Origin: Nannobrachium achirus
Taxonomy: Eukaryota > Chordata > Actinopteri > Myctophiformes > Myctophidae
DNA: 64,000 nucleotides
Reading direction: 5' to 3'
Assembly (NCBI GenBank): GCA_963921795.1
Contig: OY997642.1
Location: forward strand, 118,501-182,500
Of this stretch, positions 8,661 to 57,029 are shown piece by piece (the first letter of the stretch is position 1; each line of letters starts with the position of its first letter). Made by a program: the position numbers and the translations under genes. The notes under the pieces are model-generated. The model ran no database searches and was not told the origin of the DNA. It was given only the letters and a program-made list of their open reading frames with translations.

Positions 8661-9103
8661 GCCCCACCTTCACTTAATGCGGCCCACAGGTTAATACTGG
8701 AATACTGATATAGTATTTCAGCTGTTGCAATTCCATTTCCAACCATGCAAACATGACCCGCTATAATTACTTCAGTCTATATTAGTAGCTTAATGACTAG
8801 TCTTTTTTATGTCCAATATATTTGTATTTAAGTTCACAAAATGAACATAAGAACATGGAGATGCATTTGAAATTAAATCAAATTGTTACTTTTCAGGATT
8901 CCAATTAAAACATAGCTAAACAAAGTTTGGGATTCCAATTCAAAAATAGCAGATCTACAAGCTTAAAATGCATCGCACTGCGACACGTTTTGAGCTTGTA
9001 GATCAGCTATTTTTGTTATGTTTGACTGTATATGCATTGTGGCCCTCTGGAGTGAGTGTGAAAATATAGTGGCCCTCTCTATAATCAAAGTTGTCCACCC
9101 CTG
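7958..9103 (+). mobile_element. hAT-type MITE, CATGGGCAAC family, end amplified
   Basis: The left end CATGGGCAACTGGCGGCC occurs at 7958 and again in every minisatellite unit; the last is at 8628. The right end AAAGTTGTCCACCCCTG stops at 9103 and is the complementary, slightly better kept terminal repeat. The body lacks an ORF and includes a 73-bp hairpin. A matching 8-bp target duplication is not clear. A second copy of the body, interrupted by two insertions, lies between about 38874 and 44190. Confidence 0.7.
8942..9014. repeat. Hairpin module, copy in CATGGGCAAC MITE
   Basis: The left arm at 8942-8970 and right arm at 8986-9014 are complementary over 29 bp with three mismatches, around a 15-base loop. 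The arm core is AGATCTACAAGCT. Confidence 0.85.
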
Positions 9104-9308
9104 TATTATATGAAGTCCTCCTAAATGTACTGAGTTACTTTACACCACGGTGTGACCAACCTGCATAATGTCATAGAAGATAATGATAATATTAACACTT
9201 TAATTAATACATCTCATGGACAGATAAAGTGACACACTAGTGCAATAATACTGTCAACGCATTTCAAAGTCAGGACTCCCAAAATGATGTAACAAATGAG
9301 CCATCATG

Positions 9309-9500
9309 GTTTAATTACTGTCCGGCTTTGTGTTCTTTAATAAGAAGCCTTTTTATGCGATATGTTTCTGTAATAGAAGATAATAATAATATTAACACTG
9401 TAATTAATACATCTCATGGTTTAATTACTGTCCGGCTTTGTGTTCTTTAATAAGAAGCCTTTTTGTTGATGTTTTCAGTGCATTTCTGGACCCAGTTTAG
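9309..9500. repeat. Left arms of an interrupted foldback element
   Basis: Two direct copies of TTAATTACTGTCCGGCTTTG + TGTTCTTTAATAAGAAGCC lie at about 9311 and 9421. The complement of this sequence is found at 10440-10516, so a foldback element was split by the hAT MITE at 9523-10404. Confidence 0.75.
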
Positions 9501-9549
9501 CAAGGCCACGCCCACAATAGATCAGTGGTTCTCAACCTTTTGTAGCCGC

Positions 9550-10050
9550 AACCCCAAAAATAATCATATTTTAACTGGGGGACCCCCAAAATAATCATAA
9601 CTGGGGGACCTCCAAAATAATCATATTTTAACTGGGGACCCCCAAAATAATCATATTTTAACTGGGGACCACCAGAATAATCATATTTTAACTGGGGGAC
9701 CCCCAGAATAATCCTATTTTAACTTTTCAACTGGGGACCCCCACAATAATTAATCATATTTTAACTATTTTAACTGGGGACCCCCAAATTAATCATATTT
9801 TAACTGGGGACCCCCAAAATAATCCTATTTTAACTGGGGGACTCCCAAAATAATCATATTTTAACTGGGGGACCCCAAGAATAATCCTATTTTAACTTTT
9901 CAACTGGGGACCCCCACAATAATTAATCATATTTTAACTATTTTAACTGGGGACCCCCAAATTAATCATATTTTAACTGGGGACCCCCAAAATAATCATA
10001 TTTTAACTTGGGACCCCCAAAATAATCATATTTTAACTGGGGGACCCCCC
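9550..10050. repeat. ~30-bp minisatellite inside the MITE
   Basis: About 14 copies of GGGGACCCCCAAAATAATCA + TATTTTAACT, with a longer repeated block (about 9700-9780 and 9870-9960). The unit is derived from the element's own subterminal sequence. Confidence 0.88.
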
Positions 10051-10103
10051 ATCCGGACGAGCACTAAGAGTTGAGGCATTACATTTGTGTAACATGGTTC
10101 TAT

Positions 10104-10160
10104 TGTGAAAATATCAGATCTACATGCTCACAACGCGCATGTAGATCTGCTATTTTCACA
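10104..10160. repeat. Hairpin module, copy in CAGTGG MITE
   Basis: Arms 10104-10127 and 10137-10160 pair over 24 bp with one mismatch; the loop is 9 bases. The arm core here is AGATCTACATGC rather than ACAAGC. Confidence 0.88.
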
Positions 10161-10439
10161 ATTTCTGCCTCTATATATTTGACAATTTGGCCAGGGTTTA
10201 ATTTGTCATTTTAGAGGTATTAAAAAGTCCTTAAATTGTCACTTTAGAAATGTGCAGATACCTTCTATACACTTAAACTTTGTGTTGGTTTGTTTACTGT
10301 TGAGAGAGAAAACAATGTTTCACATTAAGTTAATCATCTGGGGACCCCCCAAATTAATGTGGGGACCACCCTGGGGGTCCCGACCCACAAGTTGAGAACC
10401 ACTGCACTAGATGGGGTTGGTGCACATGCGCGGAACACC

Positions 10440-10516
10440 AGGAAATGCATGGGAAAACAGAAACATGTCGGATAAAAAGGCTTCTTATTAAAGAACACAA
10501 AGCTGGACAGTAACTA
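10440..10516. repeat. Right arm of interrupted foldback element
   Basis: This arm is the reverse complement of 9419-9500, including AAAGAACACAAAGC and GGCTTCTTATTA. With the arms joined the element would be about 200 bp. Confidence 0.72.
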
Positions 10517-10798
10517 AACAAAGCCGGCCAGGCTTTCTGACTGGTTGTGACTTTATAAAGCTCTTTGTTTGTGTAATTTGACAGTTTGTTTAGTTTTTAT
10601 TGGTCTTTTTATTCTCCTGCTGCAACGCAGGTGAATCTTCCTCCGTGACGGCCCTACGTCATGTTATCAGCGACCGTCCGTCACGTTTCAGGGCTCAATT
10701 AAAACATTTGACGGCAAATAAACTCCTAAAATAGTTGTTTTAGTCTGCATTGAATGATTTTCTAGCGGCAGTTTGTCCTCTAAATGTCCTCTTCTTAC

Positions 10799-10845
10799 CA
10801 GAATAACGAGTTTCCTTCTTCTGTCCGCCTCGGTGCCGCCGCCAT
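10799..10845 (-). CDS. Probable first coding exon of an unidentified host gene
   Basis: On the minus strand an ATG at 10845 in a GCGGCGGC context opens 15 codons (MAAAPRRTEEGNSLF) plus two bases. It ends at a consensus splice donor, TTCTG|GTAAGA. The exon is CpG-rich unlike the surrounding repeats. A CACGTG box and a CCAAT box lie just upstream, as in housekeeping promoters. No downstream exon was recognised below it, where the DNA is all repeats, so the gene would continue past the left edge or across a long intron. I do not recognise the protein. The call rests on the start, donor and promoter together and could be a chance match. Confidence 0.45.
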
Positions 10846-10930: not shown

Positions 10931-10989
10931 ACCACCAGTAGAGGTCGCTGATGATCTGACTTTTCAGATAACTAGTTACTAGATTACTA

Positions 10990-16880: not shown

Positions 16881-17243
16881 GTAACAATAACAACAATAAT
16901 AATAATAATTCATGGGAATTCAAGAAGAAGAATTAATAATAATAATTAATACATTGAATTTAAATAACGTTTTTCTAAGTAGGCCTACTTAAAGATGCTT
17001 TACATGTGTGTGGGTGGGGGCCAGGGGAGAGGAAAAAAAGAGAGCATGTGATGGGGACTTGACTAGGAGGATGGCATAATGTTATCAGTATAATGTAGGC
17101 TTACTAGGCTATCAGTATTTCTTTCTTTGTTGATGTGCCATGTGTTTATGTGGATATAATGCTATTATAAAAAAAATGTTGTTGTATGTTCCATACAGTG
17201 ACAATAAACATCTTATCTTATGTTATCTTATCTTATCTCATAG

Positions 17244-18074
17244 GTGATGCTGCTGCTAGCCCCGCTTACCCTTCTGTATGGAACACTGAACAATTTGAAG
17301 AGTTCAAGCACAAAAATGAATGGCTCTATGCTCATAATGGCAATCTAGGCTGTACCCCTTGCCATGATGTCAAGCATCTGGGTGTGCAAGCATCCCGTGG
17401 AGTCAGTATTTCTGTTCAGTGGGCTGAAGGAAAGGTAGGCCCCAATGGTAAAACAAGGGAAGCCCAGCTTGGATCATTGCGCAAAAAAATAAAACACAGG
17501 GACTCCGCAGCACATAAAGAAGCAACCAAAATCATTGAGACGGCCAACAAAGATACACTTCTACAGTTGAATGCCAGAAGTCAGGAGTCTGCATTTGAGT
17601 CTACTGCAAAGGTGTTCAGGACCGCTTATTATGTGGCCCAGGAAGATAAGCCGTTCACAGACTTTGAGAGGCTGATAAACATGCAGCAGGCTAATAACAC
17701 TGATTTGGGGCGAATTTTACACAGCAAAACGGTCTGTGTTGACATCATTGATCATGTGTCGTCTCAAATGAAACGGGGAGTTCTTAACAAAATAATTGAG
17801 ACCAGGAGTAAGATCACAGTACTTGCTGATGAGTCAACAACTGTTGGGCACAAATCAACACTCATTGTGTTTCTGAAGACTAGTGTTGATGGAGACACAG
17901 ATCCCATTGCCTTTCCATTGGACCTGGTTGAGCTGGATAGTCTGTCTGCTGCTCACATCAAGGAAAAGCTCATGGATTGTCTGTTGAAGAATGGCTTCAC
18001 CATTGAGTTGCTGCAGGAAGTCTTCATAGGATTCTGCAGTGATGGGGCCAGTGTAATGCTGGGAGTGAAGTCAG
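17244..18074 (+). CDS. hAT transposase exon 2: zinc finger and first catalytic part
   Basis: The exon starts after TCTCATAG and ends before GTAATA; both junctions are phase 1. It codes 277 codons: a TTF/BED-like finger (LGCTPC, then H-x5-H in KHRDSAAHK), a helical part, then VLADESTTVGHKSTLIVFLK and GFCSDGASVMLG. These match the two Asp regions of the hAT RNase-H-like fold. The sequence resembles proteins that fish annotations call E3 SUMO-protein ligase KIAA1586-like, which are hAT transposase relatives. The enzyme would bind the element ends and cut and join DNA in the nucleus. Confidence 0.88.
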
Positions 18075-18249
18075 GTAATAATAAATATTAATAAATATGA
18101 ATAAGTAATAATAAATAACAATACATATTAATACATGTTAATTAATAATGATGAATTATAAATGAGTAATAAATAAGTGCAATATCCCCAAACAATTCTA
18201 CATGCTCATGCTACTGAGGAGTCCTGTTTGGCAATATTTTGTCTCTTAA

Positions 18250-18290
<41 letters not shown>

Positions 18291-18292
18291 AG

Positions 18293-19501
18293 GTGTTGGG
18301 AAGTTGCTCCAGGATGATTTCCCAGGCATTGTGCTCTGGCACTGCCTTAATCACAGACTGGAGCTTGCTGTGGACCAGGCACTAGATGTAACAGGAGGAA
18401 CCAACGACTTTCCTTGATACCCTGTATTCCTTATACAGCCAGTCACCCAAAAACTCACGGGAGCTGAGAGCATGTGCACTTGACCTTGACATCTCCCTCA
18501 GGAGGATTGGACGTGTGTTCAGTGTCCGCTGGGTAGCCTCATCATTCAGGGCAGTCTCTGCAGTTTGGGACTCTTTTCCAGCCCTGGTGAAACATTTCCG
18601 TGATGCTTCTGAAGATGCTACTAGGGACGGCAAAGAGAGGTCCAAATTTAAAGGTCTGCTCTCCAAATTGTGCTCCATTAACTTCCTGCAAAGCCTTGCA
18701 ATTATGGTTGATGTTCTCACTGAACTGAAGAATTTGTCCGAAATTCTTCAGGCCAGGAAGATCACCATTCCAAAAGCTCATGACGTCATGAAAGCCTATG
18801 TCAAGCGCATAGAAAGCATCCATAGGTTCCCAGGGAAACAAGCTGAGGCCAGCCAGGCAGAGCAAGCAATGCAATTCCACGGCGCGCAGTTAAGTGTGGG
18901 AAAGAGTCCCATCATTAACTCTGCTCAGTTCATTCAGGCAGTGGCAGACAACATGAGAGAGAGACTGTTCACAACCACAGCAAACCGAGCACAGGCCAGT
19001 GTCACAGAAAGCCGAAAAGAGGCTTATAATGCTCTTTTGAATCAAATGGCTGTCCTCAACCCTGAAACTTGGGACCACGAAAACCCTCGATATGGAGAAG
19101 AGGAGTTGAGTGCGTTGAGCCGTGCCCTGCATGTTAGTGAACAAGAAGCCCACCTTGGATTCACAGAGTACAAGGCAATTGGAGGAAGAAGAATTCCCAA
19201 CAAGTTGAAGAAGTTGGTCATGGCAGTGGACACTCTGTCCGCAAGCAATGCTGACTGTGAGCGAGGGTTCAGCTCAATGAACAATATCATAACTGCTAAA
19301 AGAAGCAGAATGACAACCAAAAATGCAGCAAACCTCCTCTTCATCAGCACTGTAGGACCACCAGTGGAAAAGTGGAATCCGATGCCCTATGTGATGACTT
19401 GGCTGGGCAAAGGGAGAAGAGCAGCCCACTCAACTAGTTGCATGGCAAGCCGTCCAACAGAAGAGGATAAATACTTCGAGCCACTGTGGAAAATGTTTTA
19501 A
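18293..19501 (+). CDS. hAT transposase exon 3: catalytic C-terminus and hATC dimerisation domain (one frameshift)
   Basis: The exon begins after a (CTGT)n tract ending in AG. Reading on from exon 2 gives VGKLLQDDFPGIVLWHCLNH and RLELAVDQALDVTGGTNDF, then TGA at 18415. One extra T in the run at 18409-18411 explains this: in the next frame the protein resumes with DTLYSLYSQSPKNSREL and runs to TAA at 19499. The C-terminus has the hATC signature (TLSASNADCERGFSSMNNI, then TTKNAANLLFIS). The copy is therefore inactive as a protein source but could be mobilised in trans. Confidence 0.85.
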
Positions 19502-20028: not shown

Positions 20029-20233
20029 CAGTGGTTCTCAACCTTTTCAGGACACGACTCCCAAAATAATGATATTTTAACAATTTCTGGTTCTAATATT
20101 TGATAATTTGGACAAAGGTTAATTTGTCATTTTAGAGGAATTAAAAAGTCCTTAGATCCTCACTTTAGAAATGTGCAGACACGGTCACCTTAAACTTTGT
20201 TTTCTCACTCAACAGTAAGGTTGAGAACCACTG
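20029..20233 (+). mobile_element. 205-bp hAT MITE nested in the hAT transposon
   Basis: It starts CAGTGGTTCTCAACC and ends GGTTGAGAACCACTG. Both flanks are CTGTAGAC (20021-20028 and 20234-20241), a perfect 8-bp duplication. It is an internally deleted relative of the MITE at 9523-10404 and lacks the hairpin module. Confidence 0.95.
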
Positions 20234-20771: not shown

Positions 20772-21243
20772 CAAGGGTCTTCAACAGGGGGTCCTCCAAA
20801 TCTTTGTGATAGAAACCTTTTTTTTTTCTTCCTGAGAACTTTAACCAAAAATAGCAGATCTACAAGCTCACAACGCCCTACAAGCTCACAACGCCTCGCG
20901 CTGTTGTGAGCTTGTACATCGGCTATTTTAGGCAAAGGGGTTTGGTACGTGTAGAGGTGAAATAGAGTACAGAGTGAAAGGTGAAGTTTATTAAGTATTG
21001 ACGGTTCAAGTGGTTAAATATCTGAAACCACAAATTGACATGAATCCAAAATACACTGATGACCGTGTTGCCAAACAATGAAACTATATGGAATCTATGT
21101 ACAGGTTGTGGGGGTCCCAGTCCCTGCTTCATCTCTCTCTCAACTAAGGGGTCCCTGCTTCATCTCTCTCTCAACTAAGGGGTCCCTGCTTCATCTCTCT
21201 CTCAACTAAGGGGGCCTAGGCCTGAAAACGTTGAAGACCACTG
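20772..21243 (+). mobile_element. hAT MITE, CAGGGGTCTTCAAC family
   Basis: The ends are CAAGGGTCTTCAAC and GTTGAAGACCACTG, with flanks CCTTATGC and CCTTATAC (7 of 8). The interior has a hairpin at 20846-20930, then a short array of TCAACTAAGGGGTCCCTGC + TTCATCTCTCTC near the right end. Confidence 0.88.
20846..20930. repeat. Hairpin module with partial arm duplication
   Basis: The left arm (20846-20875) is followed by a second copy of its inner half, CTACAAGCTCACAACGCC, before the right arm at 20901-20930. The duplicated inner half shows that the arm can copy itself locally. Confidence 0.82.
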
Positions 21244-21251: not shown

Positions 21252-22297
21252 ACATAGTTACAGTACTTTACCGGGTCAGAGTTAAGGCGTTGGGGACCAC
21301 ACAGAGGGAAATAAAACAAACTATCCTATCACTATAGCTGCAAAGACATGGACATCTACAGGCTATGGGTTTGAGGTCTGATTCAATTCAAACAGTAGGC
21401 CTGTAATCGTTTCAGTTGTTCTCTCATTGAGTGGGCTGAAAAGTGAGAGGGAGAAGCGATATGATACATGAACAGCTTCAATATTGCAGTGTTGCATATT
21501 GCTGGTTCTTGACTTCAGGGTCAACATCAAACGTTAATCTGCAGCGTGTGGCCCTCAAACCATGCATTAACATTTGTCTTTGGGAGAGAGCATCATCTCA
21601 AATGCCAATAGTACCAGTGCCAGTCCAAGGAATCTATGACTGAAAATAGACCATAGTCAAGTGACAAAGTATTAAGTCACCAAGACTGCTGCTTGGCAGG
21701 TGTATATTGACCTACATGTACGACCTTTATAGAATTGTGAGGTTGCGCTTGTCAATTCCCATCCGACCTACGGACGGATGGGTGCTGATAAGGAATGATG
21801 GTCTGATGGACTGACTGATGGATGGACTAATGAACTGACGGTGACTGACTGACTGACTAAACTATGGTAGCGACTACACCACGTTACTGACTAAATGAAT
21901 GAATGATTTATTTTTCGTGTCTGGCTGCCTTTCACAGCCCATCCCTTACGGGATTATTCAGACACAATTTAAATAACAGTTTTTTCCAGTGCCAACATGC
22001 TGACACAAAAATGAATAACTAAATAAACAAACAAAATATAAGTAATGCTGCATACTGTATACTTCTGATCAAAAGTACATCAAGAGTCTGATATTCTGAC
22101 TAAATAAACTATGGCACTGTCCAGGGACATGGAGAAAATGTTGGAGAGGCAGGGTCTGAAATGTTTAAAAGCACCGAAAATAGCAGACCTCCAAGCTCAC
22201 AATGAGACTGACTGTGGTACTACTGACTAGACCAAACAAACTATGATACAGACAAACACTTGTTCCATTCAACACTTTTATAAAACCCAATGAGCAG
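21252..22297. other. Intergenic stretch with diverged repeats
   Basis: CACATAGTTACAGTAC (21252) and CAGGCTATGGGTTTGAGGTC (21359) repeat sequence seen at 20728 and about 15981, on the two sides of the hAT transposon. A run of TGACTGACTGAC lies near 21845. AAATGAATGAATGATTTATT at 21893 may be the tail of a minus-strand LINE. Half of a hairpin module is at 22175-22204. No gene is supported. Confidence 0.5.
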
Positions 22298-22362: not shown

Positions 22363-22599
22363 TTTTGCTTTTGGATTTATTTAGGTTGAATGGATCAGTG
22401 TATAGTCTGGTGTTTTACTCTGTTTCAAATGTCACAATATGTAGAATGCATACTGTGTGCTGCATTCCAAGATACTTGTGGTCTTTGTACAGGTGGTGGT
22501 TGTGTTGGAATGGGTGGTTGTTGTTGTCAAGCAGTTTGTTGCGGTTGTAGTGGTTGCAGTGATGGTAGTTGATGTAGTAAACGTTGTGGTGATTGTAGA

Positions 22600-37078: not shown

Positions 37079-37480
37079 CTAGAATAGACACAGGAATTAA
37101 CCCATTAAGACCGGGAACGCATCATTACTTTAACCATTTTTTTCATGCTTTAACTATTAAAAAGAATAGCAGATGCAAGCTTGTAGATCTGCCATTATTG
37201 AATTTGTATCAATTTGTGCAAGTCTTTGAATATTTGACCCAATTCTATAATCTCTCTTAAATAAGTAAATGTACTTACTAGTTACTTTAAGCCACTGCAT
37301 AGGCCTTCTAGCTTTAACTCTTAATAAGACAGCAGTGATTTGCTTTGGATGTTTGACATCATGTGAAGTCCACAAGATGGACACACATTTTGTCAGGTCA
37401 CCAGTTTCCCCATAACACCGGAGGAGGAGCTAGGCAGAAATGTGAGGCTTGGAATTTGTCTTGAAAAGAACCACAGAAGT
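37079..37480. other. Intronic or intergenic stretch with a collapsed hairpin module
   Basis: At 37162-37199 a shortened hairpin keeps AATAGCAGAT and AAGCTTGTAGATCTGC but has lost most of the loop and left arm. Nothing else is recognisable. Confidence 0.5.
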
Positions 37481-37768
37481 CTTTAGACCAGGGCTCTTCA
37501 GCGTTTTCAGGCCAAGGACCCCTTAATCGAGAGAGAGAGATGAAGCAGGGACCCCCACAACAGATACAGTAGTTTTGTTTGACAGCACAATCATCAGTGT
37601 ATTTTGGATTCATGTCAGTTTGTGTTTTCAGATATTTAACCACTTGACCATCAATACTTAATAAACTTGACCTTTTAGTCATTGACCCACAAGCCCAAAA
37701 GCTCAAGGAATAGGGGTGATACCTGTGATGTCTTTCCATACTTTTTATTTCTGTTTTTTTTATTTTTA

Positions 37769-38500
37769 GCACAGAGTGAAATAGTCAGGGACCCAGTCCC
37801 TGATAATGGGAGAGGACTTGTGATGTTCTGCCGTACTTTTTATTTATATTTTATCTATTAGTTTGGTCATTAAGGTCCACAGAATGACAGGCCTGCTCTG
37901 ACGGAAACATCGTGAAAAAAAGTTATGGCCATTTGTATATTCACTGTCCCATCGACTTCACTATACAGGAAAAGAAAAATATATATTAAAAAAAAAAAAA
38001 AAGTGCTTTAAGTAGCATGTGAGGGGTCAAACTAGGGGTTCTTCATGATTAATCCATTGCAAGCATTTGTTTTGCATGAAAAACATTCCTAGGGCAAATT
38101 ATCAGCCCCCCAAAACTGTGAAAAGTTAATATTTTATGATGACTCTTCACTTTTTACAATTTTGGGGGGCCAAAATTTTGCCCAAGGAATGTTTTTCATG
38201 CAAAACAAATGCTTGCAATGGATTCAGAATCATGAAGAACCCCTAGTTTGACCCCTCACATGCTACTTAAAGCAGATTTATTTTTTGTATTCTTTTCCTG
38301 TATAGTGAAGTTGATGGGACAGTGAATATACAAATGGCCATAACTTTTTTTCCACGATGTTTCCAGCAGAGCAGGCCTCTCATTCTGTGGACCTTAATGA
38401 CCAAACTAATAGATAAAATATAAATAAAAAGTACGGCAGAACATCACAAGTCCTCTCCCATTATCAGGGACTGGGTCCCTGACTATTTCACTCTGTGCTT
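37769..38500. repeat. 730-bp foldback, ~350-bp inverted arms
   Basis: The left arm begins GCACAGAGTGAAATAGTCAG and the right arm ends with its complement at 38500. Pairing continues with few mismatches to the centre near 38135. One arm alone recurs at 54040-54215, so this is a dispersed family. Confidence 0.92.
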
Positions 38501-38536
38501 GGTCTGCTCTTTTCCCCCTCTACACTAAACCTCTTT

Positions 38537-38607
38537 GCCAGAAATAGCCGATCTACAAGCTCACAACGAGGCGTTGCATGTGAGCTTGTAGATCTGCTAT
38601 TTTTGGC
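38537..38607. repeat. Hairpin module, copy F
   Basis: Arms 38537-38568 and 38572-38607 pair over about 30 bp with a few mismatches; the loop is nearly absent. Outer bases GCCAGAAATA and TATTTTTGGC extend the pairing beyond the common core. Confidence 0.85.
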
Positions 38608-39370
38608 TAAAGTTCACAGATTATGTTCAAGTGGTTAATATAAAAGGAGAAAAAAGTTTCTATCATTCAAAGATTTGGAGGACCCCCCTGTAGTAACTCT
38701 GAGGACCCCCTATGGGTCCCGGACCCCCTGTTGAAGACCCCTGCTTTAGACCAGTGGTTCTCAAAGTGTCTGGTTCACCTGTCAGCCTTTAGACCAGTGG
38801 TTCTCACAGTGTGGTCTGAGGACCCCCAGGGGTCCTCTCAACTTATCACCATCAGTATAAACCATACATGGGCAACTGGCGGCCCCCACCTTCACTTACT
38901 GTCTAGCGCCACCCGCAGGTTAATATGGGAATACTGATATTATTGATTTCAGCTGTTACAATTCTAAACATGCAAACATGACGCTGTCACCTGCTCCAAT
39001 AGCCGGGCAGATAACAGAAATAATCGTTCACTTGCGGATACAAGCACCAAAATTGGCACACATACTCCTTAGGGATTGCTCTTTTCATAAAACCATCTGG
39101 CCAAATCAAATTTCAAGATGGCGGCCATTTTTCAAGATGGCCGCCATAAAATACCATAGACCTGTCCTATTTGAATGATCTTGGTGTCAAATCATACATT
39201 TTTCACTATGTAGAATCCAAATTTGGACCCATGGACTTACTCACTGGCTTCCTTGTACCATATATCAGTCCCGGAATCCTAATATTCTGCTAAATTAGAG
39301 GTTTGTGTTATGTCTGACTCGGATAAAATGGGTGGTAGTGTATATCTTAGTATTGTTAGAGGTTTATAGT

Positions 39371-39438: not shown

Positions 39439-39765
39439 TAATGTAGTAATGTAGTAACTCAACAGAGCGGATTTCAATGCACAGCGGCTGACGTGGCTAA
39501 AATGCATGGTAGATATAATAGCGCCGTGGGATCACTCTTTGTCTAGTCTCTATTCTTCGACCTTTTCGACTTGGGTAACCCTGCCAGGAGTACAGGAGTA
39601 CAAGACTCCTGCCGACATAGCTCTGGGGGTCATGGAGACACGCAAACCGCCTCACCACGATAAGGTGATGATCCCGTCGAGGCAGGAGGTAGTTTTTTTT
39701 TTGTCTTTTCTTTTTTTTTTCTTTTCTAGGGCCTAGGCAGTATAGTACAATAGTATAGTAGGCCC

Positions 39766-40964
39766 AGTGTTGGGCAGTAACAAATTACTAATAATATATT
39801 ACTGTAATATTATTACTTTTTCCAGTAACGAGTAATATAAGGTATTACTCTAAAAAAAATGGTAATATATAACGCTTTACTTCGCAAAATAAAAGCCTCG
39901 CTACTCCGTTACTAGCCATTTTAGCCGATTGCAGAAAAAGAACAGATCTACAAGACATCAACATACATCTACACTTCTACAGAGATGCGATGTAGCTTGT
40001 AGATCAGTCATTTGCGCAGTGCGCACAGTTATGACGTTGCTTATGTCATGAGACCAGTGCATGGACCAGTGCAGTGTCAGCGCTGCCCTCAGTGCCCTGC
40101 CTGTCAGTCACAGAGCGAGCATCAGCGTGCGACGCCGACGCGCTTACAGTACATGGATGGGACATTTACAATCTACAAGCACTCCTCTCGGCCGCGGAGG
40201 GGTCCGCGGGGGTCCGCCGCGGAGGGGTCCGTCGCGGGGGGTCCGCCGCGGACCGTCCGCGGAGCTCAGCGGGACCACCGTGGACTGAGTTGCTGCTGTT
40301 AGCCACTAATAGCCAGTTAGCGTAGCCTCCACTGTCTGAGCCCAATAAGCCTCATGTCTGTTATAAAATGTAAAACTACTCACGGACTCGGAGTCACGGT
40401 TTTAGGGAGTTGAAAGCCTACTTTCCTTAGTGGGAACACCCAAAGCCCCTGCACCTCACGTCTAAAATAGCCTACACTTTTTAGGCAGAAAAGAAAATAT
40501 GTAGCCTATTATTTAAGGATAATTAGGCAGGGGTCTTCAACAGAGCTGAGAGTTTTAAATGTAATAAAAAATAAGCAATGTTTTGTTGGGTTATATATTA
40601 TAAATGTCTTAATTATTAATTGATAAAATCCATTAAAAAAGTTTCTAACTGTTCCCAGGTCAAATATTGATGTGTGATTAAAATGTGATTAATTGAGATT
40701 AATTAATTACAAAGCCTGCAATTATAATTTCTTTAATCACATCCCAGAGACTCTTATTGTTCCAATAAATTGGATTCAGTTCTAAAAGGAGCTGGCTAAA
40801 CAGATTTTGCAGGTAAAAAAAAAAAGGAAAAAAAAGTAATATAACTTAATATATTACATATTACTCTTGATTCCAAGTAATAAGTAATATAATATTATTA
40901 CTTTTTCCAAGGAGTAATAAGTAATAAGTAACGATTACTCTCCTAAGTAATATTGCCCAACACT
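39766..40964 (+). mobile_element. hAT MITE, AGTGTTGGGCA family
   Basis: Ends AGTGTTGGGCA and TGCCCAACACT are flanked by GTAGGCCC and GTAGGCCT (7 of 8). Subterminal regions are rich in GTAATAT/ATATTAC. The interior contains a hairpin module (39931-40017) and a GC-rich GGGGTCCGCCGCGG short repeat at 40190-40280. Confidence 0.88.
39931..40017. repeat. Hairpin module, copy G (diverged)
   Basis: The left arm GCAGAAAAAGAACAGATCTA + CAAG and right arm GTAGCTTGTAGATCAGTCATTTGCG pair imperfectly around a 37-base loop that itself contains ACATCTACAC. Confidence 0.7.
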
Positions 40965-40986
40965 GTAGGCCTATACTACAACGCTT

Positions 40987-42140: not shown

Positions 42141-42145
42141 CAGCC

Positions 42146-47895: not shown

Positions 47896-48689
47896 ACTTT
47901 CAGATCAGATTTAAATCTCTTTAAACTTCACAAAGCTTCAAACACAAATACTCGTTAAATAAACTCATTTAGCTTCTCTTTAGCTCTCTACAATTTGCAG
48001 GCATAATAAATCCACCATAAATAAAGTAGTCCTTCTACAATATAGGCAAGCCTACAACACATTATATGGCAGGAGTCCTCGATCAAATAAACAATTATTT
48101 TAAAAAGCAAATGAATCTCAGTTAAACCAACAAGACAATAAAGGAATAAAGAAACTGTCGGCTCTGATGTTCTCATTTAGGAACTTTGACAAGAGATAAT
48201 CGACCCATCAAAAATTATACTGATTATATAATGATCAAAAGAAAATGGTCTAAATGAAATCATAGTCATTTAAACTAAGCAGAGAATAAATCAATGCAAG
48301 TCGAGGCTCGTTTCAACACAACTAACCCAAGCTGAGACAGAAAGAGAGACAGAACAGTAAATAAACACTGAACAAACATTTCCACACCTTAATGACAGCA
48401 AAGCCTTTAAATTAACAACAGGGACTAATTAATTAATGATAAGTGAATTAAACTCACGCTATCAAAGCAGCAGGACCAAAACATCAAACAGAAAGCAGCA
48501 GAGACAGAGAAATCCACGCATCTCATAACAACAACTTAAAGTGATTTCACTCACGGTATGAAAGCAGCAGGTCCAACACATTCAGACACACCAAACAGTC
48601 AGCTGCGCCACACGGCCGTATGGCCGAATTATAGAACAGCATTTATAGACCTGAGGTAGTTCTTTTACCTCTGCAGGGTTTCTGTAAGG
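47896..48689. other. AT-rich stretch, no gene seen
   Basis: Two related passages (GCTATCAAAGCAGCAGGACC at 48456 and GGTATGAAAGCAGCAGGTCC at 48555) suggest a ~100-bp old duplication. No ORF with a domain and no recognisable transposon end. Confidence 0.5.
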
Positions 48690-49180
48690 CAGTGGTTCTC
48701 AACCTTTTCAGGCCGGGGACCCCCCACAATAATAATATTTTAACCGGGGACCCCCCACAATAATCGTATTTTAACTGGGGACTCCCCCCGCCCCCCCCAC
48801 CCTGACGAGCACTTACAGTTGACTCAACTGTGTTATTTTTGTATAACAGTTCTATTCTGAAAATAGCAGATCTACATGCTCACAACGCATTGCGTTGCGA
48901 GGAATGTAGATGAGATGTGTGAGCATGTAGATCTGCTATTTTCAAAATTTCTGCCTCTAATATTTGACAATTTTGCCAATGTTTAATTTATCATTTCAGA
49001 GGTATTAAAAAATCCTTAAATTGTCACTTCTATACCTTCTATACACTTAAACTTTATGTTGGTTTGTTTACAGTTGAAGAGAGAAAACAATGTTGCAACA
49101 TTAAGTTAATCATCTGGGGACCCCCCAAAATAATGTGGGGACCCCCCTGGGGGTCCCGACCCACAGGTTGAGAACCACTG
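48690..49180 (+). mobile_element. hAT MITE, CAGTGGTTCTCAACC family
   Basis: Ends CAGTGGTTCTCAACC and GGTTGAGAACCACTG; flanks CTGTAAGG and CTGTTAGG (7 of 8). It holds only two of the GGGGACCCCC repeats and a well-kept hairpin at 48858-48944. Confidence 0.93.
48858..48944. repeat. Hairpin module, copy H
   Basis: Arms TGAAAATAGCAGATCTACAT + GCTCACA and the complement at 48917-48944 pair nearly perfectly over 27 bp. The loop of about 30 bases holds an extra ATGTAGATGAG, so the right arm was partly duplicated. Confidence 0.88.
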
Positions 49181-49439
49181 CTGTTAGGCTCACAGTGATG
49201 TGACATGGGGTAGTTATTTTACCTCTGGCTCGGTTTCTGTAAGCTCACAGCTTACAACCACTAATATAGTCTGAACGCGAGAAGTGTGAATGATCTGCCT
49301 AAAATGTAAGGTTTTCTGTGTTTTGTTAAACAGAACAACATTTATAAATAATAGTTTGAAGCTTTATAATCAGGACACAACGCGCTTGCCTTACAGACTC
49401 TAGTCAAGGCATAAAGGTACCTCCCACCTACTGACATAA

Positions 49440-49849
49440 AGTTGAATGAATGGAGATATTTGGGGGTCTCCAGATGTTTCGCTTATATATTGGTTAACAT
49501 TTATTTTCTCACTCAGCAGTAAACAGACCAACATACAGTAGCCTATAAGTGTATACAGGGTATCTGCACATTTCTAAAGTGATCATTTAAGGACTTTTAA
49601 GATCTTTTTAATACCTCTGGTCAAACATTGGCCAAATTGTCAAAAAATATTAAAGGCAATAGCAGATCTACATGCTCAAAACACGAGGCGTTGTGATTAT
49701 GTAGATCTGCTATTTTCACAATAAAACAGATCAAGTCAAACTAATGTAATGCCAACTCCTACAGTTCAAAGTGCTCATCAGGGTGGGGGGTCCCCAGTTG
49801 AAATGTGATTATTTTCAGGGTCGTGGACTGAACAAGTTGAGAACCATTG
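49440..49849 (-). mobile_element. hAT MITE, CAGTGG family, reversed and diverged
   Basis: The element is the family body in reverse orientation, ending GTTGAGAACCATTG at 49849, with the hairpin at 49656-49716. The other end is degraded (GGGGGTCTCCAGATG near 49463). Confidence 0.72.
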
Positions 49850-50639
49850 CTTTAGAGCAACAGCAATAAACCAATGTGGGGGCAGAACTCTATTCAGAAA
49901 CACCCCTACTTAGAAACATCCCAATTCAGAAATACCCCCACTGAGGTTAGGGTTTAGGTTAGGTTTAGGTGACACCTCCATTTAGAATAATGGAAGTCAA
50001 TGTTTCTGAATAGAGATGTGTAACCAGCCTATGTTTGATAGTAAATGCATGTTGGCTCTGGTTTGAGTGTGAAAATCCCCCCTGGCCAAGCTTGGTTAGC
50101 TAGTCCAATAGCTCACATAATGCATCTGGTTAGCCCTCAATACAGATGCATTACATTATACAAAACATAGCAACATGACTCAAATACAACAAAACAGCAA
50201 AACCTACCCAGTCAATACAGTATATTCCAGGATCCCTTTGGATTCCTGGTACAGGCACAGCTCATGCTTCCAGGTCTGCTACAAACACCCAAATGAGAGG
50301 CTTCTGGGCAAACCACTAGGCCGCCCACCTGGCCATGCCTTAAAGGGCCAGCGCTACACAATACAAATGCATAGGCTGTCAATGGTTGCTGTTGCAACTC
50401 TAGATTCAACATTTGTAAAATAATCTAGAGTTGCAATTTGCGGCTTTTAATGTATTTGTGCATCAATGACAGTCTGTTTCTACATTGTGGTATTGATACG
50501 TTTTAATTTAAAGTAAAAAAGAGAAAGGTCTCCGCCAGGTCAGGTAGGTTATTGTTAGCCTGACACTTCAGTCCGCACATCACCCCCCCCTGTTGGTGGG
50601 TGGTTTGTAGTGTGGACTGAAGCTGCACATATTTTAATC

Positions 50640-50850
50640 TATTTCAAACGCGCCTGAAGAGCGGGCGCATTGAATGGGCCAATCAGGGTTGTATGCTTGG
50701 GGCACGTGAACTCTATGCTCCGGTCCCAGCCCCCTCCAAACAGAGCTTTTGAGCTCACGTGAGACTCGCTCGTGGACTCTGATTGGTGTCCTCTGCCCAC
50801 GTGAGAGTCTAGTGGACTCTGATTGGTCCGTGAAAACTGTCATGGCGGAG
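50640..50850 (+). promoter_or_regulatory. Promoter-like block with CCAAT and CACGTG boxes
   Basis: Three CACGTG boxes (50703, 50756, 50798) and three CCAAT boxes, one forward (50679) and two reversed (ATTGG at 50782 and 50822), lie within 150 bp. GTGGACTCTGATTGGT is repeated at 50772 and 50812. CpG density is raised relative to the flanks. An ATGGCGGAGTC start follows at 50842. Confidence 0.5.
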
Positions 50851-50883
50851 TCAGACTCGACTCGTATTATTAATAAACTATGA
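50842..50883 (+). CDS. Possible start of a host gene or a 13-codon ORF
   Basis: TGTCATGGCGGAGTCAGAC gives MAESDSTRIINKL and then TGA. If a donor exists at CTC|GTATTA the first exon would code MAESDST and continue downstream, but that donor is weak and no next exon was recognised. Support is the promoter block only. Confidence 0.25.
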   Translation: MAESDSTRIINKL

Positions 50884-50992
50884 AATAGTGCCGTTTCCTC
50901 ACGTTTTAATACCATTTTGCACTAACGTAAACATGCAGACATATAATATGTTATGAGAAATAACGTATTTTTGCAATGTCACGCCACGTCGC

Positions 50993-51290
50993 GTGTGTGT
51001 GTGTGTATGTGTGTGTGTGTGTGTGTGACGTCAATAGGCTTTAGCCCGCCCACGCCGAAATAGAATCTGCCCTGGTAATCTCAGACTCTCCCGGAGTGAA
51101 ACGTAGTGAACGTAGTGTGAGATGTCTGGCGCTCGCAGTCAGGCAAGGTTAGTGTGGGCCACAACGGACACAACATAACGTTTTACTGGGATGTTTGTGC
51201 TCTGTTGTCTTCTTGCTGCAGTTACAGTATATATATAATATAATATAATATAATATAATATAATATAATATAATATAATATAATATGTTT
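50993..51290. repeat. (TG)n and (TAATA)n microsatellites
   Basis: A TG repeat lies at 50995-51028 and a pure 5-bp TAATA repeat at about 51236-51285. Between them is a CpG-containing single-copy stretch with ATGTCTGGCGCTCGC. Confidence 0.88.
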
Positions 51291-51329
51291 ACATGTCAAC
51301 ATAAACATGAAAAGCCTCAGGCAGCAGCT

Positions 51330-51822
51330 ATAGGTCCATATCACTGATTTAACAGACCATACTGTAGGTTGTCCATACTCCATATCACTGATTTAACAGA
51401 CCATACTGTAGGTTGTCCATACTCCATATCACTGATTTAACAGACCATACGGGTTGTCCATACTCCATATCACTGATTTAACAGACCATACGGGTTGTCC
51501 ATACTCCATATCACTGATTTAACAGACTATACTGTAGGTTGTCCATACTCCATATCACTGATTTAACAGACCATACGGGTTGTCCATACTCCATATCACT
51601 GATTTAACAGACCATACTGTAGGTTGTCCATACTCCATATCACTGATTTAACAGACCATACTGTCGGTTGTCCATACTCCATATCACTGATTTAACAGAC
51701 TATAGGTTGTCCATACTCCATATCACTGATTTAACAGACTATAGGTTGTCCATACTCCACATCACTGATTTAACAGACTATAGGTTGGGTCTATACTCCA
51801 CATCACTGATTTAACAGACTAT
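51330..51822. repeat. 40/44-bp minisatellite
   Basis: About 12 copies of CCATATCACTGATTTAACAG + ACCATACTGTAGGTTGTCCATACT. Long units have CTGTAGG, short units lack TGTA, and the last three shift to GACTATAGG. A hAT MITE inserted at the end of the last unit. Confidence 0.92.
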
Positions 51823-51824
51823 AG

Positions 51825-52403
51825 CAGGGGTCTTCAACAGGGAGTCCGGGACCCCTAGGGGGTCCTCAGAGTTACTACAGGGGGTCCTCCAAATCTTCCA
51901 CTCCTTTTTATATTAACAACTTGAACCCTAGTGACCATATTCTGAGAACTGTAGCCAAAAATAGCAGATCTACAAGCTCACAACGCCTCATGCTGCGAGG
52001 CATTGTGAGCTTGTAGATTGGCTATTTTCAGCAAAGAGGTTTGGTGTAGAGGGGGAAAAGAGCAGACCAAGTACAGAGTGAAAGGTCAAGTTTATTATGT
52101 AGTGACGGTTCAAGTGGTTAAATATCTGAAAACACAAATTTACATGAATCCAAAATACACTGATGATTGTGCTGTCAAACAATGAAACTATATAGAATCT
52201 ATGAACAGGTTGTGGGGGTCCCTGCTTCATCTCTCTCTCAGCTAAGGGGTCCCTGCTTCATCTCTCTCTCAACTAAGGGGTCCCTGCTTCATCTCTCTCT
52301 CAGCTAAGGGGTCCCTGCTTCATCTCTCTCTCAACTAAGGGGTCCCTGCTTCATCTCTCTCTCAACTAAAGGGTCCTTGGCCTGAAAACGTTGAGGACCC
52401 CTG
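51825..52403 (+). mobile_element. hAT MITE, CAGGGGTCTTCAAC family
   Basis: Left end CAGGGGTCTTCAACAGGG, right end CGTTGAGGACCCCTG. Flanks GACTATAG and GACAATGC agree at only 5 of 8. It contains hairpin copy J (51954-52034) and about five 33-bp tandem copies of TAAGGGGTCCCTGCTTCATC + TCTCTCTCAGC at its right. Confidence 0.88.
51954..52034. repeat. Hairpin module, copy J (longest arms)
   Basis: Arms of 35 bp (51954-51988 and 51999-52033) pair with about four mismatches around a 10-base loop. This copy shows the fullest form of the module, GCC-AAAAATAGCAGATCTAC-AAGCTCACAACGCCT. Confidence 0.88.
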
Positions 52404-52429
52404 GACAATGCAAATACATGTCAGTCTAA

Positions 52430-52760
52430 CCAGTGTGACTGGTTCTACAGACAGGGATCTCCATATATGGGCATAAAAGGGATTATGTTAGTGTGGTTCC
52501 CCAGGAACAGGACTTCATATGGGAATGGCCATATATGGAGGCCACATCGGCCACATAGCATCCCTTTTATGCCCATATATGGAGATCCCTGATGTCATCA
52601 ATATTAAGCCCACACCTGTGAATGCCAATATAAACATGTCAGTCTGGTTCTACTGACAGGGATCTCCATGTATGGGCATAAAAGGGAGATTATGTTTGTG
52701 TGGTTCCCCAACTTCCCCTAACAGGACTTCATATGGGAATGCCCATATAGATGCCTTAAT
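52430..52760. repeat. CCATATATGG repeat, second block
   Basis: Perfect boxes lie at 52461, 52529 and 52573, within the same GACAGGGATCTCCATATATG and TTCATATGGGAATGCCCATA segments seen at 41790-42140. Parts occur in both orientations. Confidence 0.85.
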
Positions 52761-53426
52761 GGTCCACGTCACATTGATATAAACCAGTATGCGCACGCCG
52801 GTCGGCACCAAATGAACCCCACCGTTCATAGGATGCAATGGATGGCACTCGTGTTTAAAAATGCATTCCATCAAACTTTCGGATGCCGTTTTTCTCCCAG
52901 TGTGGAGGAAGAATGCTTAGGATTTTTACTGTAAATTCTCACTCTTGAAATATATAATCCTTAGTTTCTGTTGATTGTAAACAATAATAGCGATTCAAAA
53001 CAGTTGTCCTTCAAACCCCACCTCTATTCACCGTCATCAGAACAGAGGGAGCGCTCCTCTTGATCACCCACCCGATCCACTGGATCACCAGAGCGTCTAC
53101 TGCTCGCCCAGCTGCAGTCCATGAAGCCTAATTATGCTCCGTCCTGCGACGGTGTCGCGCGCAGAGCCGCAGACCTCCAAGCTCAGAAGGGTTGCATTGG
53201 TGACGCGATGTGAGTTTGTATATCAGCTACTCGGTTGACGTGGAACACCGTTGCGCAATGAAGTATATGTCTCGATAAGGGCGCACCCATGGGCGCACCT
53301 CACTAGCACACAAGAGGAGGTTGAATAACCAGTGCTCCCCAAAACAACAGGTTTGGGGATCTGTTGGGAATTGATTACATGATACAGTCAGCTGTGCATT
53401 CAGTCTCAATGTTTGTAAACAAATAA
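52761..53426. other. Mostly single-copy stretch, no gene seen
   Basis: A degraded hairpin module lies at 53166-53230 (AGACCTCCAAGCTCAG and TGTGAGTTTGTATATCAGC). The rest has some CpG but no ORF with a recognisable domain. Confidence 0.45.
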
Positions 53427-53536
53427 TTGGCCTATATGGAGGCCACATCGGCCACACACAATCTCTTTTATGCCCATATATGGAGATCCCTGTCTGTAGA
53501 ACCAGCCACACTGGTTAGACTGACAGTCTAAGAACA
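53427..53536. repeat. CCATATATGG repeat, third fragment
   Basis: It has one perfect box at 53474, GGCCTATATGGAGGCCACAT, and CCTGTCTGTAGAACCAGCC, the reverse of the order at 52430. Confidence 0.75.
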
Positions 53537-53861
53537 TCCCACTAAAAAAACTCCCGTTCATTTTCCCCATAGACTTTTGCAAAAATATTTATAACAATTA
53601 TGTTAAGCCTCGAACCAAGCCATCCAGGATGGCAATCATGACCATAAAACCTTTGTTTCTATGAAAAGGACATTTAGAAAATAGCTAAACAAAAAGGGTA
53701 TTTATTACACGTAATATATCAAACAATGAAATTTGAAAATATATTTGTATGGTCATGATTCACTGCCATCCTGGATGGCTTGGTTCGAGGCTTAACATAA
53801 TTCTTATAAATATTTTTGTAAAAGTCTATGGGGAAAATGAATGGGAGATTCTTTAGTGGGA
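53537..53861. mobile_element. 325-bp palindromic MITE, TCCCACTAAA ends
   Basis: TCCCACTAAA at 53537 and TTTAGTGGGA ending at 53861 begin inverted arms of about 120 bp that include AAGCCTCGAACCAAGCCATC and CATCCAGGATGGC. The target duplication could not be fixed, so the superfamily is open (Tc1/mariner is one option). Confidence 0.82.
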
Positions 53862-54039
53862 CCATAGTCAGGGGTCAGGGATATCTTCAGAAATAGTGTA
53901 AAATCCTGGAATAAATTCCTTACCAAAACATTTCTTCACCAATGTGTTTGTAAAGGTGTTTAGTAACACATCTCACAAAGACTGAAATTCAGTTTCCCTG
54001 GGAGAATCCTTGACAGCTGATGAAAGTTGGGGTCCCATT

Positions 54040-54270
54040 AAATTAACTATACAGGATAAAACACACCAAAATAAATATGCTTTAAGTAGCATGTGAGGGG
54101 TCAAACTTTTTTTTTTTTTTTTCATGATTCTGAATCCATTGCAAGCCTTAGTTTTGTACAGAAAACTTTCCTTGGGCTAAAAACGGAACCACAAAACTAT
54201 GGTTTAGTGATGAGCCATCACTTTTTTGTTCGCAGCGAGTTGTGAGCTTGAAGAACTGTTATTCTCACTT
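54040..54270. repeat. Single arm of the 730-bp foldback family, with half hairpin
   Basis: TGCTTTAAGTAGCATGTGAG + GGGTCAAACT and GATTCTGAATCCATTGCAAG match the right arm at 38163-38280. A half hairpin module (GTTGTGAGCTTGAAGAACTG) follows at 54236-54266. Confidence 0.78.
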
Positions 54271-54650: not shown

Positions 54651-54651
<1 letters not shown>

Positions 54652-54867: not shown

Positions 54868-54944
54868 ACAGACAGACAGACAGACAGACACTCACTCACT
54901 CAGACAGACATTTGCAAAATTATAGTATAGATATAGCTATATCT

Positions 54945-54994
<50 letters not shown>

Positions 54995-55190
54995 CAATCA
55001 ATCAGTCTGTCTATCTATCTATCTATCTTTCTTTCTTTACAGTTTAGGCATTTATCAGAAGCTCTTAGTCCAGAACAATAAGCAGATAATACAGAAAATC
55101 TAGAAAGTATAACCTAGTTAGACAGAGAATCTAATCAGTAAACAACTTAATATAATAATAATAATAATAATATAATAATAATAGTTACCT
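54868..55190. repeat. Microsatellites and a minus-strand L2 tail
   Basis: (CAGA)n at 54868-54890, (AATC)n and (TATC)n at 54946-55030, then at 55034-55110 the complement of the L2 tail (TTTACAGTTTAGGCATTTAT; compare 31235-31280), and (AAT)n near 55150. Confidence 0.75.
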
Positions 55191-55304
55191 ATATTATCCC
55201 ACAGGGGAAATTCAGATATCGCAGCCCAACCCAGCTGCTTTGTTTATCAGCTTTAACCCAGCTGAACTCAACCCAGTGATGCCCACAAGGAGCGTATTAG
55301 TAGG

Positions 55305-55595
55305 CACCACGGTGATAAGCTTTCCACCGTGGTGTAGTCTTTTTAAGTCATAAAACTACAACATTACGTCATTACTCGCGGTGAAAAGCTTTCCACCACA
55401 AACCCCCGACACATCTCTCTGCTTTTACTATCAGACAGATCGGCCCATCACCCCGTTCACTGATTGGTCGATCTAGACCAGTCAGTCACGGTGAATAGGA
55501 CTCCACCGTGACCGACTATGATGGCCTTCACTTATTTTCTGACTTGAGGTGGAAAGCTTTCCACCTAAAATTTGCGGTGGATAGCTCTTCACCGC
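55305..55595. other. Cluster of five GGTG-N10-CACC hairpins
   Basis: Hairpins lie at 55305-55334 (10-bp arms), 55380-55397, 55485-55512 (9-bp arms), 55547-55566 (perfect 20-bp palindrome) and 55574-55595. In each, GGTG and CACC are 10 bases apart and the spacer resembles ATAAGCTTTC. Arm bases outside GGTG/CACC differ among the five but remain complementary within each. It is not a transposon end that I recognise. Confidence 0.75.
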
Positions 55596-55639
55596 GGACT
55601 ATGATAGAGGCTTAAAGCCCGTATCAGAGTCTACGGTGG

Positions 55640-55755
55640 AGATAATAATAAGCCTCGGCTTTCTAGGATCTCCTTTTAGTTGACCTTGTAGCAGTGATTT
55701 GTACTGTCATGAAACTGTACTTTTTTCTATTGCAAACTTCTAATAGATTTTTCAA
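55640..55755 (+). repeat. LINE 3' UTR fragment, copy 2
   Basis: AAGCCTCGGCTTTCTAGGAT to AAACTTCTAATAGATTTTTC matches the 3' UTR of the copies at 47390-47895 and 58294-58685. The coding part is missing. Confidence 0.82.
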
Positions 55756-56245
55756 CCACCTCCCCACCCGGTCTGGGCTGTCTGAAAGTGAGTTAGTCTT
55801 TTTTAGCACCAATATAATAGGAGTCAGGAGAAATCAAATGGCGAAAGTAGGCACGTTCTGAGACATGTCGACCCGTTGATTGTTGTTAATATTTGGGGTT
55901 TTTGATGTTGGAAATTACATAAATGCCTCGCTGGTATGTTTTTTGTGTATTCCACTATTCCTCATCCTACCCCTGCTCTCCATTGCAGAAAGCAACATAA
56001 CGATTGAAGCTTGCACGTTAGAGTAGCGTCCCTCCGTCAACACAATGTTACATGCGTAGGCTATTTAGTTACACCATAGCATTTGCACGTTCGCGAATGT
56101 GTCACTGTGTGCGTTCGGCGTGCGTGCTCTATTAACGCATTATTATGATACACGATCCAGTGGTTATGAAGTGAGGCAATGTTTTTTGTGAACATGGATC
56201 GGAGAGACAGAGAAACAGACAGGTTTTCACTGCAGCGCACGCACG

Positions 56246-56287
<42 letters not shown>

Positions 56288-56508
56288 ACGGAGGACGGTG
56301 TATCTTTCTCTGTCTGTATCCGATCCGAGGCATTTTAACGGTCCGGTCGCGCCCCCCGCCGCCGCCGAAAACCGAAAGAGAAAAAGTGTTTCTAAAAGCT
56401 GTTTATGTGTTTGCAGCGTGTGTGCAGCTTGTGCATTAACAATACTATCCGTGTCCGTGTTGTGTCCAAAAATGCCATACGATTGTCTGCCTGCTGCTGC
56501 TACTGTGT
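55756..56508. other. Single-copy stretch with a (CA)n tract; no gene seen
   Basis: GCACGCACGCACGC passes into (CA)n at 56238-56284. GCCCCCCGCCGCCGCCG at about 56350 and AGAGACAGAGAAACAGACAG at 56203 are simple-sequence-like. ORFs across the tract are products of the repeat. Confidence 0.55.
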
Positions 56509-57029
56509 GAGATATGGGACGTTCGCGAACGAATCAAGTCTTGTGAACGGCTCTTTGAAATGAACGATGGGATCCGGTTCGTAGTAGGGAGCCGTTCCTT
56601 TTGTAAATGAAGAGTGGTGGGAAAAGTACTCAAATTCTTTACTTAAGTCAAAAAAATATCAATACTGCAATCCATGTGGAAATACTCTGCCACAAGTAGA
56701 AACCTGGAATGTTAAGTAAAAGTACAAAAGTATTGGTATCAAAATGTACTGTAAGAATGTCCTGTTTCACAGGTTTTACAATGAATTAAATGTAAAAAAA
56801 GAAAAGAAATAAAACAATAATTTGTGAGCTTGTAGATGGGCTATTTTCAAATAGCAGGTATGTAGGCTACATATGTATGTCAGAAATACATTTATATAGG
56901 GTTGAAGTTATTTGTAATCATAATCAAAATCTACATAGTAAATCAAATGAGTCAGTCTTTTGAACGGCTCTTTGAAAGGAACGGATCCCAGAGATCCGGC
57001 TCACTTCAGAGAGCCATAAATCCCATCTC
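56509..57029 (+). mobile_element. hAT-like MITE, GAGATGGGA ends
   Basis: GAGATATGGGACGTTC at the left and AAATCCCATCTC at the right are flanked by TACTGTGT and TACTTGTG, a partial 8-bp match. AACGGCTCTTTGAAA occurs near both ends. The interior has AAAAGTACTCAAATTCTTTA, typical of Tol2-like subterminal sequence, and a half hairpin module at 56821-56848. Confidence 0.6.

What the first reader, a model, noticed from the sequence alone, without database searches (positions are those of the whole stretch)
8942..56848. A small hairpin module shared by unrelated hAT MITEs and also found alone
A 60-90-bp near-perfect hairpin with arm core AGATCTACAAGCTCAC occurs at 8942-9014, 10104-10160, 20846-20930, 38537-38607, 39931-40017, 48858-48944, 49656-49716 and 51954-52034. 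Halves or damaged copies lie at 22175-22204, 37162-37199, 53166-53230, 54236-54266 and 56821-56848. The hosts have four different terminal repeats (CAGTGGTTCTCAACC, CAGGGGTCTTCAAC, CATGGGCAAC, AGTGTTGGGCA), while the hairpin arms are far more alike than the rest of those elements. The arms tolerate paired changes (ACAAGC/GCTTGT versus ACATGC/GCATGT). It could be a minute mobile palindrome, a shared replication or capture signal for hAT elements, or a hairpin RNA source.
Basis: seen in the sequence. Interest (0 to 1): 0.72.

Follow-up and report, generated by a model that had tools for sequence, protein, structure and literature searches.

The report
Shared hairpin inside several MITE families
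Several small "jumping" DNA elements with different ends carry the same short hairpin inside them, which is inherited within each family and is probably a kept signal for movement rather than an independent mobile unit.

Summary
The 18-base arm (up to three mismatches) occurs 20 times in 64 kb against 0.08 expected; all 15 GATCTACA sites lie in the module. Seven of the eight listed hairpins fold far better than shuffles, the eighth (39931) less so. A model from families A and B finds the hairpin in C strongly and in D weakly. With hairpins masked, one representative per family: A and B share only tip sequence; A/C, A/D, B/C and C/D share nothing above shuffles. So A and B are sisters, not unrelated.

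Within A and B the hairpin sits at the homologous place and decays like its flanks. None of eight hairpins has a border duplication beyond chance: a mobile palindrome is unsupported, not excluded. My best reading is a palindromic signal kept by active hAT source elements and inherited within families; exchange by repair is the main rival. Coral CMITEs are a close published precedent (PMC2872659). The decisive genome-wide search could not be run: the genome search failed in 14 of 14 tries.

The parts
9523..10404 (+). A-family hAT-type MITE (TIR CAGTGGTTCTCAAC, 8-bp duplication CAATAGAT/CACTAGAT), expanded by about 30-bp tandem units
10102..10162 (+). hairpin of A10, loop shortened by a deletion
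48690..49180 (+). A-family MITE, duplication CTGTAAGG/CTGTTAGG
48854..48948 (+). hairpin of A48, 25 of 25 core pairs
49440..49849 (-). A-family copy A49, one end not found (start approximate)
49650..49722 (-). hairpin of A49
20029..20233 (+). A-family MITE of 205 bp without hairpin, perfect duplication CTGTAGAC; similarity resumes at the right border of the hairpin
20772..21243 (-). B-family MITE (CAGGGGTCTTCAAC type), duplication CCTTATGC/CCTTATAC
20842..20935 (+). hairpin of B20, with a duplicated arm piece
37489..38743 (+). B-family MITE with a nested insert at about 37676-38499, perfect duplication CTTTAGAC
38535..38609 (+). hairpin of B38
51825..52403 (-). B-family MITE; 8-bp duplication not recognisable (5 of 8)
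51952..52034 (+). hairpin of B51
8624..9103 (+). C-family element (tips CATACATGGGCAAC and CAGGGGTGGACAAC), duplication TGTTATAT/TATTATAT
8937..9019 (+). hairpin of C8, found by the model made from A and B only
39765..40965 (+). D element (tips CAGTGTTGGGCAGTAAC and CAGTGTTGGGCAATATT), 6-bp duplication TAGGCC
39929..40020 (.). divergent hairpin of D39
22175..22204 (+). single arm, variant GCAGACCTCCAAGCTCA; host unknown
37157..37204 (.). hairpin with its centre lost; host unknown
53166..53230 (.). decayed hairpin, left arm with the same variant as 22175
54236..54266 (-). single arm; host unknown
56821..56867 (.). single arm followed outward by a second, decayed arm (14 of 19), an inside-out arrangement

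Best explanation
The hairpin is a palindromic internal module of hAT-type nonautonomous elements. Families A, B, C and, more loosely, D each inherited it in their active source element, at a place about 75-250 bp from the nearer tip. It is kept between families about as well as the tips, or better, while the rest of the interior drifted beyond recognition. Its most likely work is as a cis-acting signal for mobilisation: a dyad or cruciform bound by a BED-finger hAT transposase or by a host factor, with the core AGATCTACA...TGTAGAT. After insertion, copies are inert and the hairpin decays like its flanks. Shown here: the sharing, the inheritance within A and B, the loss of similarity elsewhere, the neutral-looking decay. 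Inferred: the signal function and its binding partner.
For: The model from A and B finds C blind at E 6e-19. Hairpin-masked representatives show no similarity beyond A/B tips and a B tip lying inside D39. Arms are as alike as tips between A and B (p 0.26) and more alike than tips in A/C and B/C (p 0.009 and 0.014). Of six rows of an unbiased scan for tips plus duplications, one simple repeat was dropped and four of the remaining five carry the hairpin (controls 0, 1, 0 rows). Arm and flank divergence do not differ in 6 of 6 within-family pairs (p 0.28-0.79). hAT transposases are reported to bind repeats near the tips through the zinc finger (PMC4890040, passages). In coral CMITEs an internal region more conserved than the TIRs is suggested to serve transposition (PMC2872659, sections 10 and 15).
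Against: A20 (205 bp, perfect duplication) has no hairpin, so the hairpin may be dispensable, unless the loss came after insertion. Loop length varies, which does not suit a rigid dyad. The three B copies share an arm mismatch, so the B source was already imperfect. Pair changes do not exceed shuffles in number. Arm sub-motifs show no clear excess outside the hairpins, as a subterminal repeat would. D shares only about 12 bp per arm. C and D rest on one copy each, D has a 6-bp duplication, and that C and D are hAT elements is partly recalled. No binding or transposition data exist.
Confidence: 0.42

Rival explanations
1. The hairpin has no function. It was present in one element and reached others by recombination or template switching during repair of hAT excision gaps, which palindromes may promote, so that new families formed around the same hairpin.
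For: Families with different tips share it. A20 and the C-like piece at 50030 resume similarity at the hairpin border, and the A20 junction shows a short shared TATTTT (by eye). Single arms seem cut at the loop at 22175, 54236 and 56821 (by eye).
Against: Similarity between families ends at the same outer border on both arms in A, B and C (by eye), whereas conversion tracts should be ragged. None of the four family representatives has one half of one family and one half of another.
Confidence: 0.3
2. It is a minute mobile palindrome that inserted separately into hAT elements and elsewhere.
For: Sharp two-sided borders; copies with no recognised host at 22175, 37162 and 54236; an outer-end to outer-end arm junction at 56821-56867.
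Against: 0 of 8 hairpins have a border duplication beyond chance. The six A and B hairpins sit at homologous places in their families. The stem runs on into family-specific sequence in A10 and B38.
Confidence: 0.1
3. It is a source of hairpin RNA (miRNA- or siRNA-like), kept for regulation.
For: Very stable RNA folds for seven of 13 loci.
Against: No Rfam family at gathering score in the window. Below threshold, searched for 48600-52500 only, the best match has 40.6 bits against a cut-off of 98. Arms decay like flanks.
Confidence: 0.08
4. It is plain inherited sequence from one common ancestor of the families, without function or exchange.
For: A and B tips are related; position is homologous within A and within B.
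Against: The rest of the interior is unalignable between families, so unconstrained sequence of that age should not keep 88-94% identity in the arms.
Confidence: 0.1

Closest known systems
CMITEs of Acropora corals (PMC2872659)
   Same: MITE families with different terminal repeats share an internal region that is more conserved than the terminal repeats; its origin is unknown and a role in transposition is suggested (abstract, sections 10 and 15).
   Different: piggyBac-like with TTAA duplications and a 75-base internal region, which the parts read do not describe as a hairpin; here hAT-type tips with 8-bp (D: 6-bp) duplications and a hairpin of two about 26-bp arms.
Angel element inside Tol2 (figure legend in PMC8151067)
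   Same: An inverted repeat lies inside a hAT element of a fish.
   Different: Angel sequence not compared (not held); there one hAT element is described, here several families share one hairpin.
hAT subterminal repeats (Tgf2, PMC4890040, passages)
   Same: Lie near hAT tips; the transposase zinc finger is reported to act on them.
   Different: Those are 17 and 18 repeats at the two ends; here one palindrome and no clear excess of its sub-motifs outside it.
SPIN elements of tetrapods (recalled, not looked up)
   Same: hAT MITEs with an internal palindrome, as I recall.
   Different: Different palindrome sequence, as I recall; not tested.

Membership tests
hAT MITEs (hosts A and B) | matching terminal inverted repeats of the CAGNGGT...CAAC type (hAT label recalled) | tested here: met
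   A49 lacks one end
hAT MITEs (hosts A and B) | 8-bp target site duplication | tested here: met
   A10, A20, A48, B20 and B38 with 7 or 8 of 8; B51 only 5 of 8
hAT MITEs (hosts A and B) | mobilised by a hAT transposase | not testable with these tools
   A hAT-like fragment lies at 18392-19498 (PF05699 E 0.00055, 20.1 bits, below the cut-off of 21.4); no link to A or B tips shown
hAT element (host C) | 8-bp duplication next to the tips | tested here: met
   TGTTATAT/TATTATAT, 7 of 8; one copy, hAT likeness of the tips recalled
hAT element (host D) | 8-bp duplication | tested here: not met
   only 6 bp, TAGGCC; D is not filed as a hAT element here
Minute mobile palindrome | target duplication at hairpin borders | tested here: not met
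   0 of 8 beyond chance
Minute mobile palindrome | insertion-free homologous sites | tested here: inconclusive
CMITE-like families | internal region more conserved than TIRs between families | tested here: inconclusive
   A/C p 0.009 and B/C p 0.014 with one C copy; A/B p 0.26
CMITE-like families | TTAA duplications, piggyBac-like tips | tested here: not met
microRNA precursor | match to a known family or small-RNA reads | tested here: inconclusive
   no Rfam match at gathering score; no small-RNA data on hand

The most novel reading that the evidence does not exclude
One palindromic signal is shared across transposon lineages with unrelated tips and lets their nonautonomous elements be mobilised or replicated by a common factor, so that tips can be exchanged while the hairpin stays; with 13 loci in 64 kb it may be one of the commonest short modules of this genome.
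Probability: 0.2. Interest if true: 0.7.

Novelty: new variant of a known kind. Interest (0 to 1): 0.42.

Why it matters
If the hairpin is a cis-signal, it would help explain how MITEs with different ends amplify side by side, and would give a testable handle on what besides the tips makes a MITE successful. If it is only exchanged by repair, it shows palindromes acting as joints for building new MITE families.

Tried and rejected
Mobile palindrome: no border duplication beyond chance in 8 hairpins. Selection on pairing after insertion: arms decay like flanks and one pair of 25 changed on both sides. Known RNA family: none at gathering score; below threshold only weak hairpin matches, one stretch searched. 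Arm motif as a repeated binding site: of 24 heptamers counted outside the hairpins, CACAACG (5 against 2.0 expected), AATAGCA (17 against 11.2) and TCTACAA (45 against 30.8, mostly inside the 45-bp arrays) exceed expectation; I judged this no clear excess. Copies in other collections: 0 in viral contigs for the longer pattern; 87 stretches in genome contigs, near what chance would give by my own rough estimate, and 30 in viral contigs for the shorter pattern. A loose text check of the 87 gave two rows with only a short second-arm piece. The model found no match up to E 1 in 40 of the 117 stretches and none in the other 77, with default filters. Sequence strings in papers: none of six strings in the library. 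Weak model hits at 50386, 35760, 15716 and 52561 were read and look like other palindromes or simple repeats.

Papers: of PMC2872659 I saw the abstract, the outline and sections 10 and 15; of PMC8151067, PMC4890040 and PMC2874221, passages only; of all others, search listings. The Tol2 dissection paper is not held.

Errors made: the last Fisher test printed used a mistyped count; the right counts are. In one search the right arm of A10 is read through its loop deletion, which inflates the A10 arm mismatches; A10 and A49 entered that call only in part (from 9950 and from 49440).
Full report
What was checked. The stated sequences are at the stated places. The 18-base arm with up to three mismatches occurs 20 times against 0.08 expected, and all 15 occurrences of GATCTACA or its complement lie inside the module. 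Of 13 loci folded, seven have z from -6.1 to -10.6, 39931 has -2.9, and the five partial loci fold no better than shuffles.

Hosts. A scan for inverted 14-bp tips (at most 3 mismatches) with 8-bp duplications (7 or 8 of 8) gave six rows. One, at 35787, is a simple repeat and was dropped; of the other five, four carry a hairpin. Three block-shuffled controls gave 0, 1 and 0 rows. The four are A10, A48, B20 and B38; the fifth, A20 at 20029-20233, lacks the hairpin and resumes similarity with A48 at the hairpin's right border. Outside the strict criteria lie B51, A49, C8 and D39, all with a hairpin, and a 2.8-kb element with B tips at 44484-47248, with no arm match in it.

Relations. I compared one representative per family with the hairpin masked. 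The best match of A48 and B51 is their first 33 bp (0 of 200 shuffles as good); their other tips look alike by eye. A/C, A/D, B/C and C/D reach nothing above shuffles (107 to 200 of 200 shuffles as good), and B/D share only a 16-bp B tip that lies inside D39. No pair of interior flanks reached the level of 4 or fewer of 200 shuffles.

Hairpin between families. A covariance model of six A and B copies finds C8 at 80.7 bits (E 6e-19), D39 at 26.6 bits (E 2e-4) and 37157 at 23.6 bits (E 0.0015), above the best unrelated palindromes at 17.5 bits. Consensus arms differ at 3 of 50 places between A and B (tip 5 of 33, p 0.26), 6 of 50 between A and C (tips 11 of 28, p 0.009) and 5 of 50 between B and C (tips 10 of 28, p 0.014). 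C is one copy. By eye, the similarity stops at AAAATAG/CTATTTT on both sides in A, B and C (alignment); in D only about 12 bp per arm are shared.

Hairpin within families. The six A and B hairpins sit at homologous places. In six within-family pairs the arms diverge as the flanks do: A flanks 8.5-15.4% and arms 10-18%; B flanks 6.6-9.6% and arms 4%; p 0.28-0.79. The three B copies share one arm mismatch (C for A at arm position 9), so their source already had it. Of 25 stem pairs, one has changes on both sides, fixed between A and B; eight depart only by broken pairs; the covariation score is reached by 24 of 500 shuffles and the number of doubly changed pairs by 476 of 500. In C8 a further paired change (C-G to A-T in the inner stem) can be seen by eye. 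So copies look inert after insertion, and whatever preserved the hairpin acted on the sources.

Mobility. None of the eight hairpins has a border duplication beyond what random positions give, and I saw no clean empty site in the window. The stem of A10 and B38 extends into family-specific sequence, that of C8 hardly. These speak against insertion of a fixed unit. For it speak the sharp borders, the copies without recognised hosts, and the arm at 56821 that is followed outward by a second decayed arm, 14 of 19.

Mechanism. I favour a palindromic signal kept in active hAT sources, with the core AGATCTACA. hAT transposases are reported to act on subterminal repeats by a zinc finger (PMC4890040, passages), and coral CMITEs show the same pattern of a kept interior with changing tips (PMC2872659). 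The hairpin-less A20, the B mismatch and the varied loop weaken this. Exchange by repair is the main rival.

Limits. The collections that I could scan are of viral contigs and of bacteria and archaea. That the window is from a teleost is my inference from the kinds of repeats, not a tool result. Papers were searched eight times; in the rows listed, which for six of the eight were only the top of the list, I saw no paper on this hairpin. Most subscription journals and the repeat libraries were not searched.

Noticed in passing
7954-8660: A 67-bp tandem array whose unit contains the left tip of the C element plus its flanking target sequence; nine exact tips at multiples of 67 bp from 7954 to 8624.
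   Followed up: partly
44484-47248: Element with B-family tips and duplication GGCTAGAT (one base overlap, by eye) that holds a reverse transcriptase reading frame (44749-47103, PF00078) in place of the usual B interior.
   Followed up: partly
56821-56867: Two hairpin arms joined by their outer ends with a one-base spacer, inside-out relative to the full hairpins; the second arm matches at 14 of 19.
   Followed up: partly
22183-22200 and 53169-53186: Two contexts without other similarity share the arm variant GCAGACCTCCAAGCTCA, pointing to another lineage of the module.
   Followed up: partly
37676-38499: Insert inside B38 containing long inverted repeats (37992-38286, 86-95% complementary); related pieces at 54032-54181.
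   Followed up: no
about 52416-53540: Element with long inverted ends (CAGGGATCTCCATATATGGGCATAAAAGG) that encloses the decayed hairpin at 53166; superfamily unclear.
   Followed up: partly
17171-19498: Two separate reading frames; the second (18392-19498) has a weak hAT dimerisation match below the cut-off (PF05699, E 0.00055), the first none.
   Followed up: partly
1-3513: 300-bp stretches recur at 1071-bp spacing, identical in three copies and 91% in the fourth.
   Followed up: no
22541-30824: 45-bp tandem arrays that recur in blocks.
   Followed up: no
40171-40184: A further arm-like stretch (ATCTACAAGCACTC) inside D39, outside its hairpin.
   Followed up: no
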